DNA from: Halobacteriales archaeon YIM A00013
GTDB lineage: Archaea > Halobacteriota > Halobacteria > Halobacteriales > Haloarculaceae
Length of the DNA: 64,000 nucleotides
NCBI GenBank assembly: GCA_025041195.1
Contig: JAKCFM010000002.1
Coordinates: 434,001 to 498,000 of the forward strand
Direction: 5' to 3'
This document shows positions 1,605 to 52,938 of this stretch, one piece after another. A model generated the notes under the pieces. That model was given only the letters and a program-made list of their open reading frames with translations. It made no database searches and had not been told where the DNA came from. Positions within the stretch are counted from its first letter, which is position 1. Every line of letters begins with the position of its first letter. A program made the translations under genes and the position numbers.

Positions 1605-1685
1605 ATATCGATTTCTTTCGATAGCTGTAGTCATAAATTCGATGTCGGTGGAAAATTGCTAACAAAAGGTGTAAACAGCCGCGTA

Positions 1686-1695
1686 TCGGGTGACC
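1686..1695 (-). repeat. Inverted 10-bp end motif, tnpB side
   Basis: On the minus strand this reads GGTCACCCGA, identical to 3535-3544 on the plus strand. It lies 20 bases past the tnpB stop, inside a longer imperfect stem (AGCCGC near 1678 pairing with GCGGCT near 1698). It is probably part of the right end of the element, where the subterminal hairpin and the 3' end of the guide RNA of TnpB elements are normally found. Confidence 0.45.
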
Positions 1696-1714
1696 GGCGG
1701 CTTTTGTAATTCCC

Positions 1715-3031
1715 TCAGTTCAACACTCCGCGCGCCGCAAGTTGCGCGGATGAGGTCGGGCGGCTTACGTCTCGCCCCGACCCGCACAGGCTCACCAACC
1801 TCACCGACGGTTGGGTTTTGCGAGTGCGGTAATTATCGTCCTGTTCGTCACCATTCGATATACGGCGGACACCGCGCCACGCGACGTTCACGCTCGCGTT
1901 CCGGTCGGCGTGGTCCTGCTTCACCGAACAGTCGTCGTTCGTACAGACGAACCGATGGCCTGTCCGGTAACTCCGTTCGCCGCAACAGGAACAGGTCTTT
2001 GAGTTGTAGTAGGCGTCAACCTCAAACGTCGGTATTTCCGCCCACTCTGCCTTGTACTCGACTTGGTCCTGTAACGCACGGAACGGTAAGCGGTGGAGAC
2101 GGCGGTTCATGAACGTCCCATAATCCATACCGTCACGGATACCGCTCATGTCCTCGAACACAATTGTCGGCGCGTCAAAGTGTCCTGCGAACTCGACAAC
2201 TGCGGCCGAGATTCGGTGGAGAACCCAATTGACGTACCGCTCTTCCTTGTCTCCGATATGGCGGTATACCGAGTGCTGGACGGACTCTTGGCACCGACGA
2301 CTAATGTCATGAAGGCGCGTCCGTTCGCCCTTCGCGGGACCGTAATCGAGTACAAGCGTCCCTTTGGTGGCGAACGTTTCGCGGTTCAGTGCCGTGAGTG
2401 CAACGTTCCGTTCGTTGATGTCCACGCCGATGACCGTCTTGGCGTCCGATTTGTTGGGCACGTCGGCGTCGTACTGTATCGGGACATGTAGGTAGTACAC
2501 GCCCTCTCGATACAGGACTTCGGCCTGCCCGAATCCATAATCGCCGTCGGTCTCCGCGAGTGCTTCATTCAGCAACTCGATGCCCCCACGTTGGCCACGC
2601 AGGAATCCAGAGACCTTCTTGTAGGGCTTCGCACTGATGGAGAACCCTATTCGACCATCCTCCCGAACATTCAGCCGGTATCCCTCCCCGTGCGCCATGA
2701 CGAGAGGGAACGCACCATTCTTATCCGTCGAAGGCGCGCCCGGTTCTGGGTGTTCCTCGGGGTTATCCAGCGAAAGCCACTGCGAACGGAGTTCTTGGTA
2801 CGAACCCCACGTCGAGAGGGCTTTCCCAACGACCGCGCACTTGTTGTTGGCGAGGTACTCGTCGGGCTTGATGTGTCGCTGGATATCGGTCCGCGACAAC
2901 CCCCGTTGTTTGAGTTCGATACTCCGGTTAAACACTTCCCGGGAGGTGTATCGGGCGTCCTTCAACCAAGAGCGTTCGCCCTCTTCGATGTGAAGGCGGA
3001 ACTGTTTCGTCTTGGTCGGGGGCGACGCCAT
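1715..3031 (-). CDS. tnpB: RNA-guided endonuclease TnpB (IS605 OrfB family)
   Basis: A 438-residue TnpB. The three RuvC acidic residues are present: GVDINERN near residue 203, FEDMSG near 292, and DHADRNAS near 372. The last follows a four-Cys zinc ribbon (CSCCG near 345, CTNDDC near 361). Nothing is truncated, so the nuclease is probably active. TnpB proteins are programmed by a guide RNA transcribed across the 3' end of their own gene. The reading frame stays open upstream to 3100, but the start at MASPPTKTKQ (3031) fits the family, and a longer form would overlap tnpA. Its transposase partner next door is broken, so the nuclease may persist alone. Confidence 0.9.
   Translation of the reverse strand: MASPPTKTKQFRLHIEEGERSWLKDARYTSREVFNRSIELKQRGLSRTDIQRHIKPDEYLANNKCAVVGKALSTWGSYQELRSQWLSLDNPEEHPEPGAPSTDKNGAFPLVMAHGEGYRLNVREDGRIGFSISAKPYKKVSGFLRGQRGGIELLNEALAETDGDYGFGQAEVLYREGVYYLHVPIQYDADVPNKSDAKTVIGVDINERNVALTALNRETFATKGTLVLDYGPAKGERTRLHDISRRCQESVQHSVYRHIGDKEERYVNWVLHRISAAVVEFAGHFDAPTIVFEDMSGIRDGMDYGTFMNRRLHRLPFRALQDQVEYKAEWAEIPTFEVDAYYNSKTCSCCGERSYRTGHRFVCTNDDCSVKQDHADRNASVNVAWRGVRRISNGDEQDDNYRTRKTQPSVRLVSLCGSGRDVSRPTSSAQLAARGVLN
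1728..1749 (-). other. GC-rich palindrome at tnpB 3' end, possible guide-RNA scaffold
   Basis: CCGCGC at 1728-1733 pairs with GCGCGG at 1744-1749, within the last twelve codons of tnpB. Structured RNA spanning the 3' end of tnpB is typical of TnpB guide RNAs. The RNA itself is inferred and not visible as a separate gene. Confidence 0.35.
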
Positions 3032-49170: not shown

Positions 49171-49647
49171 GTGAGTGTCTATATGACCATGACTGATCTT
49201 GTTGACGCGTTCACCTCGACAAAAGTGACTCTCCGTGAAGCAGGAATTGAAGATGATTTCTTTCTTGATCTTGTTGCTTCGCGACTTCTGATAGAGCGAA
49301 TCGGTGAGTCGAATAACCTAGACTGGTGGGACTCACTAGTCTTATCAGAGACAGGACGTGCTCGGTTAGCAGACGTGACACCGAAAACACGCTTGAAGTC
49401 TCAAATCAACCTTGCGTTGAACGTTGGGAACAAAGTTGAATCAGACAGACTTCCGGAGGACTCGATTTCTCTCTTCTCCTTCGGTCCACAGGTAGAGTCT
49501 CGCCTTACCGCTGCTATCGAAGAAATCGAAGCCGACGAGGACCTAACGCTAGATGCGCTTGGGAACTTCACTGTTCAATCGCTGGATGAGCTGGCCGATC
49601 TCGTGAGGAGTGTTTCTGACGTGGAGTTCGCGCCGACTGTTCAGTAG
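49171..49647 (+). CDS. BrxE-like protein
   Basis: A 158-residue acidic protein; GTG 49171 is used, and ATG 49183 is the alternative. It shows LIERIGESNNLDWWDSLVLS (about 40-59), RARLADVTPKTRLKSQINLA (about 63-82) and SLFSFGPQVESRL (about 100-112). The R-I-G-E ... W-W ... P-T-x-L-x-S-Q ... L-F ... V-E pattern is what I associate with BrxE, an accessory protein of some BREX phage-defence systems. No BrxC, PglZ or PglX gene is adjacent, so it is an orphan or serves another system. The assignment is by eye and moderate. Confidence 0.5.
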   Translation: MSVYMTMTDLVDAFTSTKVTLREAGIEDDFFLDLVASRLLIERIGESNNLDWWDSLVLSETGRARLADVTPKTRLKSQINLALNVGNKVESDRLPEDSISLFSFGPQVESRLTAAIEEIEADEDLTLDALGNFTVQSLDELADLVRSVSDVEFAPTVQ

Positions 49648-49957: not shown

Positions 49958-50920
49958 TCACAGCTGCTGAATACGGTCGTAGAAGACCGCATGGAACCGT
50001 TCGCCGCGGTCGATCATCCATTCGTGATACTCCCCCCAGGACTCCGTATCGGTAAGCTCTCCGGGATGGCGGACAGTTATCTTCCCCCGATTGCTATCGC
50101 GCTGGGCCTCTTCTGGTGGACTCCAGAGTAGCGATTCTCCAAACTCCGTTTCAATTTCTTTTTTCTGTCGTTCAAACGTCTGATAGGCCTCCGGATCATC
50201 TCTGATTATTAGCTGACAATATAGATTGTTTTCCACGCTATTCACCGTGAACTGGAGCGTGAACTCGGAGTGTCCGATCGGATTATTGTACCAGTGTTGG
50301 GGTTTTGGTTTTCGCTGTCGAAGCGGAATATCTCGATCGCCAATCAGATCTCGGAACTGTGTCCAGTACTCCTCTTGAAGCTGTTTCGTTTCGGAGAGCT
50401 TCCCTTCAGTTCGCTTTGCTTTCTCTTTCCACTCGGAAGGGTCTTCAACCGGATTCAGCCGAACCGCGGGCGGTGAATCAGCTATCGTCCAGACTTCGAG
50501 CCTGATTGCGAAAAGATCGATCCCCTCGCGGCTGGTCTTGTTCAACCACTGAAACGCGTCTTTGTGCTCATCATTGAACTGTGGCGATAGCCAGACAATG
50601 ATATCCGCGTCAACGCCGGCTGCGTACGCAATGCACTTTCCGAGATGGTCGTGGTCAGATTGGGTCAGTTGATTCTCAATGACGACCTGGCGGTCGTCGT
50701 CAACGACCTCTGCTACGATATCGACACTGTACTTTCCGACGGATTTCTCCGTCTCGATAACCGCAAGATCCAATCCGAGGACATCCTCAAGATGAGACGC
50801 ACCTTCGGTACGGAGCTGGTCTGCCAACCAGGGAGTGAAATCGTGGGCCTCGTGCTCCCAGTATTCGCGTACGTCCTGTTCTTCTAGCTCCCGAAACCCC
50901 GGACCGTTGAACATTGCCAT
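49958..50920 (-). CDS. PD-(D/E)XK nuclease-like protein with DUF4268
   Basis: A 320-residue soluble protein. Residues about 45-112 form the nuclease-like core: KYSVDIVAEV with Asp67, VVIENQLTQSDHDHLGK with Glu82 and Gln84 in the E-x-Q position, then CIAYAAGVDADIIVWLS. The Gln in place of Lys is usual in this subgroup. The C-terminal half (from about 195) matches DUF4268 with HWYNNPIGHSEFTLQFTVN. Related proteins occur near restriction and phage-defence genes. It starts 49 bases after the GIY-YIG gene on the same strand. Confidence 0.8.
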   Translation of the reverse strand: MAMFNGPGFRELEEQDVREYWEHEAHDFTPWLADQLRTEGASHLEDVLGLDLAVIETEKSVGKYSVDIVAEVVDDDRQVVIENQLTQSDHDHLGKCIAYAAGVDADIIVWLSPQFNDEHKDAFQWLNKTSREGIDLFAIRLEVWTIADSPPAVRLNPVEDPSEWKEKAKRTEGKLSETKQLQEEYWTQFRDLIGDRDIPLRQRKPKPQHWYNNPIGHSEFTLQFTVNSVENNLYCQLIIRDDPEAYQTFERQKKEIETEFGESLLWSPPEEAQRDSNRGKITVRHPGELTDTESWGEYHEWMIDRGERFHAVFYDRIQQL

Positions 50921-50969
50921 ACGGTCAATATAGTAATCCGTCAGTAAAATGGTCAGTATTCACGTTGAA

Positions 50970-52367
50970 TTAGTGTGTGAACCGCTCGGGAGTACTTTCG
51001 TGATTTGTAACCGGCGAATCGTCCGGCGTTCCCTGCTTGTTCAACAATAATCTCGGATATGCGTCGTACGCGGTGCCGATGAGCAGTGGCTCAACCTCAG
51101 CGAGCGTCGCCCGAGTTCGATAGGGGCTACTGTCGTTCTCCTGATTCCAGGCATGGACCCACAGATACGTTTGCTCTGAGAGCGTTCGCGATGCTGGTTC
51201 GAACAGCGCCTGGACCCAGTGGCGTTTGCGCTCATCCGCTCCGTTGTACGCCCTTGACAGTTCACCGATGTGCCAGTAGTTCCCATCACCCCACCGGGCG
51301 AAGCTATTGGTTGCATTCCGGTCGTGGGCAATTTCTGTGAAGTTCGAACTCAGTTCTCTCTTTTTGCCGTGTGCCTCTGCTTTGCCGATATATCTCGGAA
51401 CGACGCTCTGAGCGGTTACGGCTGCAACTGGATCCGTAAGCTGATACATAATGTACAACAATCCATCGCATCCATCCTCAAGGACACCGCCTTCGTCAAC
51501 GCAGCGCTTTCCTTCTCGCCTGATCTCCGTATCAATCGCTGCCGATCGTTTCAGTATGTCATCTTCCTGCTTGACTTCGAGATCAGCAGTCGTTTCAAAC
51601 AGTGGAATTGGATCTGCCTGCTCTCCGTCATTGATATCAGCAATGAGATATTCTGTCAGCCACTCGTTCCAACAGTCTGCTTTCGTCGCAAGCTGCTGAA
51701 AAGAGTCACCCCCATGGCTAGCAGACTCGCCGAGAGTCACCGTTGGGTGGGCCTGCTGGTCGGTGATCCAGTCCGGACCCGCGTGACCGAGCTCGTGGAC
51801 AATTCGGTTTGGAACGAATTCACGGTTCGCAAAGCGACGGTGATATCGATTGTGTGCGTGAATGATGCCAACAAGTTTTGCTTCTAGCTCCTGTCGATAC
51901 GTTTCGTATCCGTACGGTCCCTGTTCGAGTTCGTCAACGGCTACGATCCAGACGTACAGCGGTTGGGTAGTTCGTTCGTATACTGTTGCAATGTGATCGT
52001 ATTTCGAGAAGCTTCCCCACTCACCGTCGTCCTTCCAGTCGGACGTCGGGAGTGCATTTCGGATTTTACGAGAATGGTGGCCAATTCGTTGGCTAATATC
52101 GTTTGATTCGCCGATATAGATTGGCGTCACGTCAGACGCCTCCGTACACGGACTATCAATTTGGTAGATGAGATAGCAATAGTCGCCATCATTCAGCCCC
52201 CATTTATACCTGCTGAGTGCGCTGCTCGTCTCTATCCCCTCGATGGTACCCTCGAAAAACGGAACTGGATCCGCAGTATCCTCACTGTGGATATCCTGGA
52301 GGAGTGTCCGATTGAGCCACGATCTCCATAACGCTGCTTTCGGCATCCGAGTGCTACGAACAGTCAT
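50970..52367 (-). CDS. Protein with two tandem GIY-YIG-like domains
   Basis: A 465-residue protein made of two similar halves. Half 1 (about 17-175) has WLNRTLLQDIHSEDTADPVPFF, YLIYQ (65-69), YIGES (84-88), Arg94, His97-His98 and a helix YRQELEAKLVGIIHAHN with Glu160/Glu162. Half 2 (about 236-443) repeats the layout with WLTEYLIADINDGEQADPIPLF, YIMYQ (305-309), YIGKA (326-330) and LAEVEPLLIG with Glu424/Glu426. The GIY, YIG and Glu motifs mark a metal-dependent nuclease. Two such domains in one chain could cut both strands. It begins two bases after the DUF6884 gene. Confidence 0.75.
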   Translation of the reverse strand: MTVRSTRMPKAALWRSWLNRTLLQDIHSEDTADPVPFFEGTIEGIETSSALSRYKWGLNDGDYCYLIYQIDSPCTEASDVTPIYIGESNDISQRIGHHSRKIRNALPTSDWKDDGEWGSFSKYDHIATVYERTTQPLYVWIVAVDELEQGPYGYETYRQELEAKLVGIIHAHNRYHRRFANREFVPNRIVHELGHAGPDWITDQQAHPTVTLGESASHGGDSFQQLATKADCWNEWLTEYLIADINDGEQADPIPLFETTADLEVKQEDDILKRSAAIDTEIRREGKRCVDEGGVLEDGCDGLLYIMYQLTDPVAAVTAQSVVPRYIGKAEAHGKKRELSSNFTEIAHDRNATNSFARWGDGNYWHIGELSRAYNGADERKRHWVQALFEPASRTLSEQTYLWVHAWNQENDSSPYRTRATLAEVEPLLIGTAYDAYPRLLLNKQGTPDDSPVTNHESTPERFTH

Positions 52368-52369
52368 TT

Positions 52370-52807
52370 TCAGATAGAATCAATTCGTTCATTGTACCAT
52401 CCAAGTCGCTCGCCAATCAGCAATCCCTCAACGGGAAGCTGGACAGCAACACCAGTATCCCTGAGCAGCGAAACAAGTTCCTCGTAGTATGCTTTCCCAG
52501 CGTGGAAAACAAGCGTAGTATCCGATCTGAGCAGCTCCGCAGACTCTAGTTCCTGGAAAATTTCGGCGGCCCACTCTCGTTTCTCGCTAGCCGTCGCTCC
52601 GGTGAGCGTCTTCTCGTATGGTTCGATCGGCGAGCCATCTGGCGCAAGGAGATGGTGTTTTGCCGACAGGACATACCAGTCATCGTGGATCTGTTCACAG
52701 TATTGACTCGCTTTCGTGAACAGCGTCGAAGGAGCGTATAGGTCACGGGGCCGGGCAGGTGTTTCGAGTTTTGATTTTGTACAGCTCACCAGACCGATTT
52801 CTCTCAT
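52370..52807 (-). CDS. DUF6884 protein
   Basis: A 145-residue soluble protein. Motifs are GLVSCTKSKLETPARPRDLY (residues 5-24), LFTKASQYCEQ, YVLSAKHHLLAPDGSPIEPYEKTL, and a C-terminal PVEGLLIGERLGWYN. This matches DUF6884, seen next to nucleases and nucleotide-modifying enzymes and reminiscent of the YaaA/DUF328 fold. No catalytic reaction is established. Its stop lies two bases before the tandem GIY-YIG start, so the pair is very probably translationally linked. Confidence 0.75.
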   Translation of the reverse strand: MREIGLVSCTKSKLETPARPRDLYAPSTLFTKASQYCEQIHDDWYVLSAKHHLLAPDGSPIEPYEKTLTGATASEKREWAAEIFQELESAELLRSDTTLVFHAGKAYYEELVSLLRDTGVAVQLPVEGLLIGERLGWYNERIDSI

Positions 52808-52938
52808 GCAATGTATGTGGATAGATCATTCTTAAAATGCTAGTTCTTACATTTGATCGGCGAAGTATCAGGTTGGCGTTAAACTGTTGGATCACAGCCC
52901 AATGCATCTACGCCTACAATGGGGTCACTGGACACGAA

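What the first reader, a model, noticed from the sequence alone, without database searches (positions are those of the whole stretch)
49958..52807. Candidate DNA-processing or defence operon: DUF6884, tandem GIY-YIG, PD-(D/E)XK/DUF4268
Three leftward genes are packed with gaps of 2 and 49 bases. Two encode nuclease-like domains of different families and the third is a DUF6884 protein. They lie in a gap-rich, accessory-looking stretch close to a BrxE-like orphan. Tight coupling of DUF6884 with a two-domain GIY-YIG protein is not a system I know. The role in defence is inference.
Basis: partly seen in the sequence, partly recalled or inferred. Interest (0 to 1): 0.75.

Follow-up and report, generated by a model that had tools for sequence, protein, structure and literature searches.

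The report
DUF6884 – GIY-YIG nuclease DNA-cutting module
A salt-loving archaeon carries a small protein that probably senses an odd or damaged DNA base, paired with a DNA-cutting enzyme; the same sensor is paired with, or fused to, different cutters across bacteria and archaea, so it looks like a widespread, swappable and untested anti-virus or DNA-repair module.

Summary
In detail: three leftward ORFs at 49958-52807, gaps 2 and 49 bp, encode DUF6884 (A), a duplicated GIY-YIG protein (B) and DUF4268/PD-(D/E)XK (C). The window's genome is a Halocatena-like haloarchaeon. Only part is new. DUF6884 is already half of PADLOC's untested candidate PDC-M57 (M57A+M57B), and C is candidate PDC-S11. What PADLOC does not hold is this GIY-YIG partner. 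Of 80 DUF6884-seeded loci in bacteria and archaea, 53 have a GIY-YIG or GIY-YIG-like gene beside or fused to DUF6884, from at least four mutually distant families. On the DUF6884 tree the partner is swapped repeatedly. Other partners are PD-(D/E)XK-like nucleases and AGOG/UDG-type glycosylases; in a halovirus the partner is DpdA. The order A–GIY-YIG–C recurs once (L231) with an unrelated GIY-YIG. Best reading: DUF6884 is a YaaA/DpdC-fold, base-engaging DNA sensor that licenses an exchangeable nuclease, i.e. modification- or lesion-dependent DNA cleavage, most likely type IV-like defence; DNA repair is the main rival. Against tight coupling: only 4 of 28 two-domain B loci have DUF6884 beside them, and C is mostly independent. 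Nothing is tested experimentally.

The parts
52370..52807 (-). A: DUF6884 protein, 145 aa (CTKSK at 9-13, LSAKHH at 47-52, EPYEKTL at 62-68, HAGKAYYEEL at 102-111)
   Evidence: PF21818 3.5e-40; PADLOC PDC-M57A 6.8e-34; AF2 pLDDT 94.9, best structures YaaA 5caj Z 9.3 and AF0587 2q07 Z 9.1, next rows 6.3 or less
50970..52367 (-). B: two-domain GIY-YIG protein, 465 aa; N-half has GDYCY (61-65), YIG (84-86), R (95), ELEAK (160-164), ANR (180-182); C-half is a diverged duplicate
51723..52367 (-). B N-half (about residues 1-215), canonical GIY-YIG nuclease domain
   Evidence: T4 EndoII Z 8.0 over 117 residues, UvrC Z 6.8 over 87
50973..51722 (-). B C-half (about residues 216-465), the half found alone in single-domain relatives that pair with DUF6884; the canonical Arg is not evident
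   Evidence: profile match to N-half prob 100, E 6e-59; alignment A1
49958..50920 (-). C: DUF4268 protein, 320 aa, N-terminal PD-(D/E)XK-like motif (D67 in SVDIV, E82/Q84 in VVIENQ, by eye)
   Evidence: PF14088 2.3e-25; PADLOC PDC-S11 1.8e-106; motif positions. Probably an accessory neighbour
52832..52837 (-). TATA-like TTTTAA 25-30 bp upstream of the A start codon: possible leaderless haloarchaeal promoter for A-B
   Evidence: read from the sequence; inference, not tested
49171..49647 (+). BrxE-family orphan, opposite strand; neighbour, not part of the module
   Evidence: NF033447 1.8e-27; no PglZ in the genome
52939..54171 (-). HEAT-repeat protein 131 bp upstream, same strand; neighbour, not found beside DUF6884 elsewhere
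   Evidence: HEAT_2 2e-13; neighbourhood list

Best explanation
A and B form a DUF6884-GIY-YIG module that acts on DNA bases. A (YaaA/DpdC-like fold) binds DNA and engages an abnormal base, either a virus hypermodification or a lesion. B, a tandem GIY-YIG endonuclease made by translational coupling from the same message, then cuts the DNA there. The most likely use is modification-dependent (type IV-like) restriction of viral or plasmid DNA. C is a further PD-(D/E)XK nuclease that sometimes joins the cluster. Shown here: gene identity, conserved pairing, fusions, repeated replacement of the nuclease with DUF6884 kept, and the fold of A and of B's N-half. Inferred: base recognition, nuclease activity, coupling, and defence.
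For: 53 of 80 DUF6884-seeded loci have a GIY-YIG(-like) gene within 300 bp or fused (35 M57B of which 8 fused, 6 tandem PF01541-type, 5 PF20815-type, 7 B-type); outside that distance the 14 further hits are mostly second halves of the same tandem proteins, one being an M57B 521 bp away. Fusions DUF6884+M57B in Bacteroidetes, Planctomycetes, Desulfobacterales and Gammaproteobacteria. On a 102-row DUF6884 tree partner labels need 32 changes, the B label 9 against a shuffled mean of 9.7, and the window's own clade (100/99) holds B and the unrelated c5 type. DUF6884 neighbours otherwise are PD-(D/E)XK-like genes, AGOG glycosylase (PF09171 2.3e-27), a UDG (5.2e-6), DpdA in halovirus HRTV-29, overlapping by 8 bp, and a TGT/DpdA fusion (L218). 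DpdC, which hydrolyses dPreQ0 in DNA, matches DUF6884 (PMC11888242; PMC12839542). YfjM, a DUF6884 protein, binds abasic and RNA-base lesions (PMC11701544). CMoRE, a GIY-YIG nuclease with a GIYxY-YIG motif, is a proven type IV restriction enzyme (PMC12923530); B's N-half has GDYCY...YIG. Flanks of relatives hold type I R-M, HNH and SNF2/HKD defence genes.
Against: Only 4 of 28 two-domain B loci and 4 of 13 single-domain B loci have A adjacent, so B works without this A in most genomes. 27 of 80 DUF6884 loci have no GIY-YIG neighbour. GIY-YIG identity of M57B rests on motif (profile match to c5 only P 0.007), and most of the pairing is with M57B. The partner profiles were built from DUF6884 neighbours, so the 53/80 count is not independent of how they were found. 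C is adjacent to A/GIY-YIG genes in only a minority of its loci. No substrate, activity or phage protection has been measured.
Confidence: 0.5

Rival explanations
1. Accessory DNA repair: A recognises abasic sites or oxidised/deaminated bases and the GIY-YIG nuclease incises beside them, as UvrC does, with glycosylases (AGOG, UDG) feeding substrates.
For: AGOG genes directly beside A in L046 (same genus as the window), L105 and L109, a truncated one in L108; UDG upstream of A-M57B in L137; YfjM lesion binding (PMC11701544); YaaA fold; UvrC-like fold of B.
Against: Patchy distribution (61 of 391 genomes for B), plasmid carriage, nuclease swapping, defence-gene flanks and B fragments with stops in the same replicon suit defence better than repair. 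Glycosylases are also used as defence (Brig1, PMC11078745).
Confidence: 0.25
2. Base-removal defence: A itself removes or hydrolyses a modified base (as DpdC hydrolyses dPreQ0) and the GIY-YIG enzyme cuts the resulting site.
For: DpdC belongs to the same Pfam family (PMC11888242); DUF6884 fused to TGT/DpdA in L218; weak SMUG1-like matches of the A model (Z 5.0 or less).
Against: SMUG1 similarity is at background Z. No catalytic residue assignment is tested. The Gly of LSAxxG is His in the window protein.
Confidence: 0.15
3. Coincidental neighbours: three independent accessory genes (a DUF6884 gene, a solitary GIY-YIG nuclease and PDC-S11) collected in a defence island, without a joint mechanism.
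For: Most B and most C genes occur without the other two.
Against: Seven other B loci, twelve c5 loci and sixteen M57B loci have A adjacent; fusions exist; A-GIY-C order recurs in L231.
Confidence: 0.1

Closest known systems
PDC-M57 (PADLOC candidate defence system, PDC-M57A + PDC-M57B)
   Same: A is PDC-M57A (6.8e-34); gene order DUF6884 then a GIY-YIG(-like) nuclease, tight spacing
   Different: B is not PDC-M57B (no M57B hit) but a duplicated GIY-YIG of another family; PDC-M57 appears in no paper of the searched library
PDC-S11 (PADLOC single-gene candidate, DUF4268)
   Same: C matches at 1.8e-106
   Different: Here 49 bp behind a DUF6884-GIY-YIG pair; seen in that order in one other genome (L231)
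CMoRE / PD-T4-3 (type IV GIY-YIG restriction enzyme; PMC12923530)
   Same: GIY-YIG nuclease with GxYxY...YIG pattern; fold match Z 4.5 (9u75); proposed sensing of modified DNA
   Different: CMoRE is one protein with its own sensing domain; here the proposed sensor is a separate DUF6884 protein and the C-half is a second GIY-YIG copy
DpdC / Dpd 7-deazaguanine DNA modification system (PMC12839542, PMC11888242)
   Same: DpdC falls in the DUF6884 family; DUF6884 proteins lie beside or fused to DpdA/TGT or beside QueC/QueE in other genomes
   Different: No dpd gene beside the window locus; function here is proposed to be reading, not writing, of the mark
YaaA (E. coli, 5caj) and YfjM (B. subtilis)
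   Same: Fold (Z 9.3); YfjM is a DUF6884 protein that binds lesions (PMC11701544)
   Different: Neither is described in the papers read here as part of a nuclease operon

Membership tests
PDC-M57 (PADLOC) | PDC-M57A component (DUF6884) | tested here: met
   6.8e-34
PDC-M57 (PADLOC) | PDC-M57B component adjacent | tested here: not met
   window B hits only PDC-S14 at 0.0034; no M57B match in the whole genome
PDC-M57 (PADLOC) | protection against phage | not testable with these tools
   no paper found
DUF6884 (PF21818) | gathering score 30 bits | tested here: met
   137.7 bits
DUF6884 (PF21818) | CxxxK and LSAxxG motifs (PMC11701544) | tested here: inconclusive
   CTKSK at 9-13 present; LSAKHH at 47-52 has His for Gly, as do many relatives
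GIY-YIG nuclease superfamily (B N-half) | GIY/YIG motifs plus Arg, Glu, Asn | tested here: met
   GDYCY, YIG, R95, ELEAK, ANR; conserved in relatives
GIY-YIG nuclease superfamily (B N-half) | GIY-YIG fold | tested here: met
   T4 EndoII Z 8.0, rmsd 3.7, 117 aligned; UvrC Z 6.8, 87 aligned
GIY-YIG nuclease superfamily (B, Pfam) | PF01541 gathering score 22.6 | tested here: not met
   18.7 bits; a diverged member, accepted on fold and motifs
GIY-YIG nuclease superfamily (B C-half) | complete catalytic set | tested here: inconclusive
   homologous to N-half; YIG, Glu and Asn present, Arg not evident; no PDB match above Z 2.6
CMoRE (PD-T4-3) | GIYxY-YIG motif | tested here: met
   GDYCY...YIG in N-half, motif level only
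CMoRE (PD-T4-3) | C-terminal modification-sensing domain in the same protein | tested here: not met
   C-half is a second GIY-YIG copy
PDC-S11 / DUF4268 (C) | PADLOC and Pfam profile match | tested here: met
   1.8e-106 and 89.7 bits over 27
Dpd system | DpdA and DpdB beside the DUF6884/DpdC gene | tested here: not met
   neighbouring proteins matched no dpd model; rest of the genome not searched for them
BREX (from the BrxE neighbour) | PglZ in the genome | tested here: not met
   no PglZ in the genome; control genomes rang

The most novel reading that the evidence does not exclude
DUF6884 proteins are the shared base-reading subunit of a large, unrecognised family of two-component, modification-dependent restriction systems with interchangeable nucleases (several GIY-YIG families, PD-(D/E)XK) and glycosylases. 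In haloarchaea they target 7-deazaguanine-modified virus DNA, such as that of HVTV-1 (about 30% of G as dPreQ1; PMC6884629).
Probability: 0.2. Interest if true: 0.85.

Novelty: new variant of a known kind. Interest (0 to 1): 0.6.

Why it matters
If right, one small protein fold (YaaA/DpdC/DUF6884) would be the common sensor behind a series of candidate defence systems in bacteria and archaea, explaining PDC-M57 and giving DUF6884 a testable role. It would be a counter-weapon to DNA hypermodification, notably the 7-deazaguanines that protect haloviruses and phages from ordinary restriction. The swap of non-orthologous GIY-YIG nucleases around a conserved sensor is a clean natural experiment for finding what the sensor reads.

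Tried and rejected
(1) PDC-M57B as ordinary GIY-YIG by profile: hhalign against B, c5 and PF20815-type sets gave P 0.18 to 0.0016 and no Pfam GIY-YIG hit; kept as a motif-level call. (2) PDB sequence searches with profiles of A, B, c5 and M57B: no credible hit. (3) B's C-half against PDB: nothing above Z 2.6, so its fold assignment rests on homology to the N-half. (4) A as a SMUG1-type glycosylase: matches at background Z. (5) C as an obligate third component: of 12 further C loci, A and GIY-YIG sit beside it in L231 (A 5'-degenerate), c5 0.7 kb away in L235, a c5 fragment in L240, A-M57B 8 kb away in L232; none in eight. (6) Active BREX: no PglZ. (7) Brig1/Brig3 as DUF6884 relatives: both are UDG superfamily (PMC11078745, PMC13160076). 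(8) Literature on PDC-M57: none found.

Full report
What is there. Three minus-strand ORFs, 52370-52807 (A, 145 aa), 50970-52367 (B, 465 aa) and 49958-50920 (C, 320 aa), are separated by 2 and 49 bp. A is DUF6884 (3.5e-40), C is DUF4268 (2.3e-25), and B has a sub-threshold GIY-YIG match. PADLOC calls A PDC-M57A (6.8e-34) and C PDC-S11 (1.8e-106); both are candidate, unproven defence families. A TTTTAA box lies 25-30 bp before A's ATG (by eye). The neighbours are a BrxE-family orphan and a HEAT-repeat gene. The window lies on a 745,770-bp contig; a same-genus genome, G338, has a 15,767-bp contig that corresponds to a Halocatena pleomorpha record.

Structure. A's model (pLDDT 94.9) matches E. 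coli YaaA (Z 9.3, 133 aligned, rmsd 3.3) and AF0587 (Z 9.1, 117 aligned), with everything else at 6.3 or below. This agrees with the Pfam authors, who describe DUF6884 as YaaA-related, model base flipping, and note that B. subtilis YfjM binds abasic and RNA-base lesions (PMC11701544). B's model (pLDDT 89) finds GIY-YIG nucleases first, all on the N-half: T4 EndoII Z 8.0, UvrC Z 6.8, Eco29kI Z 5.5 and the 5hmC-specific CMoRE/PD-T4-3 Z 4.5. The C-half is a duplicate (26% identity, 2e-12; profile probability 100) in which the canonical Arg is not evident.

Is the pairing real? From the DUF6884 side, yes. A scan of the 84,980-species genome collection seeded with DUF6884 alone gave 80 loci. In 53 of them a GIY-YIG or GIY-YIG-like gene is within 300 bp or fused, usually overlapping by a few bases. 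The partner is M57B in 35 (8 fused), the tandem PF01541 type (c5) in 6, PF20815 in 5 and the window's B type in 7. The profiles used for this count were themselves built from DUF6884 neighbours, but c5 and the PF20815 type were recognised as GIY-YIG independently by Pfam. M57B is GIY-YIG by motif only (GIY-x-RIG, RL..H, E, N). The fusions are in Bacteroidetes, Planctomycetes, Desulfobacterales and Gammaproteobacteria. On a 102-row DUF6884 tree the partner type changes at least 32 times; the window's clade (support 100/99) contains both B and c5 partners. DUF6884 therefore stays while the nuclease is exchanged.

From the nuclease side the pairing is looser. A is adjacent in 16 of 30 M57B loci, 12 of 30 c5 loci, 4 of 13 single-domain B loci and only 4 of 28 two-domain B loci; four more two-domain B loci have A within the 20-kb stretch.

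The third gene. C is in 72 of 391 haloarchaeal genomes. The order A-GIY-YIG-C recurs in L231 with the unrelated c5 nuclease and a 57-bp gap before C, though A there is 5'-degenerate. L235 and L240 also place c5 or a c5 fragment near C; eight other C loci do not. Separately, a PD-(D/E)XK-like protein (c6, by eye) precedes A in L058, L063, L106, L110, L111 and L114 and joins B in L047 and L048. A nuclease of this fold is a recurrent but not fixed addition.

What DUF6884 keeps company with. Besides nucleases: AGOG DNA glycosylase next to A in L046 (same genus as the window), L105 and L109; a UDG in L137; TGT/DpdA fused to DUF6884 beside a QueE-like gene in L218; QueC, a SIR2-ATPase and a nucleoside deoxyribosyltransferase beside the DUF6884-M57B fusions; and DpdA overlapping DUF6884 in halovirus HRTV-29. 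DpdC, which hydrolyses dPreQ0 in DNA, falls in DUF6884 (PMC11888242, PMC12839542), and PADLOC DpdC models weakly match several DUF6884 proteins. The common denominator is chemistry at a base in DNA. HVTV-1 carries about 30% of its G as dPreQ1 (PMC6884629), so a suitable target exists for haloarchaea.

Defence or repair. For defence: PADLOC candidacy; flanking type I R-M, HNH and SNF2/HKD genes in relatives; plasmid carriage (30 plasmid records); patchy presence; a broken B copy on the same contig; and CMoRE as a proven GIY-YIG type IV restriction enzyme (PMC12923530), whose GIYxY-YIG pattern B's N-half shares. For repair: YfjM, YaaA and UvrC analogies and the glycosylases, though glycosylases also serve defence (Brig1, PMC11078745). 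I put defence by modification-dependent cleavage at about 0.5 and repair at 0.25.

Verdict. Observation correct; interpretation partly supported. New variant of a known, untested kind: PDC-M57-like, with a different and duplicated nuclease. The broader pattern, one conserved base-engaging subunit with swapped nucleases, is the interesting part.

Noticed in passing
L197:4319-8462, L199:4321-8288, L190:2213-6494, L191 (bacteria): A four-gene operon QueC, DUF6884-M57B fusion, SIR2_2-ATPase, nucleoside 2-deoxyribosyltransferase in unrelated phyla; looks like an undescribed defence or DNA-modification system. QueC was profile-tested in L190, the fusion, SIR2 and transferase in L199.
   Followed up: partly
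L247:4001-5126 (HRTV-29, MZ334526): A halovirus of genus Dpdavirus has DUF6884 (gp32, annotated YaaA) overlapping the gene annotated DpdA (gp33) by 8 bp.
   Followed up: partly
L312-L315 (window's family, f1): Repeated cluster ArdC-like, M57B, an HNH-like gene (HNH_5 only 0.045 in L312), DUF6610 and a DUF6884 protein of about 280 aa in related genomes; ArdC-like genes also sit beside B on plasmids.
   Followed up: partly
L046, L105, L109, L137: DUF6884 directly beside AGOG or UDG-type DNA glycosylases, sometimes with a 4-bp overlap.
   Followed up: partly
L116, L117, L119, L122, L138: DUF6884 and M57B in convergent orientation with their ends overlapping by exactly 4 bp in five genomes, against the usual same-strand order.
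   Followed up: no
G000:C2:299782-300230 (L243): Broken B-type GIY-YIG fragments, 60-65% identical to window B, on the same contig.
   Followed up: partly
window 49171-49647: BrxE-family gene without PglZ anywhere in the genome: an orphan BREX component.
   Followed up: partly
window 1648-1833: sot2652 sense-overlapping transcript RNA (Rfam RF02657, 99.5 bits).
   Followed up: no
G000:C2:742849-744362: A second 16S rRNA gene close to the end of the 745,770-bp contig that carries the window, besides one on C1.
   Followed up: no
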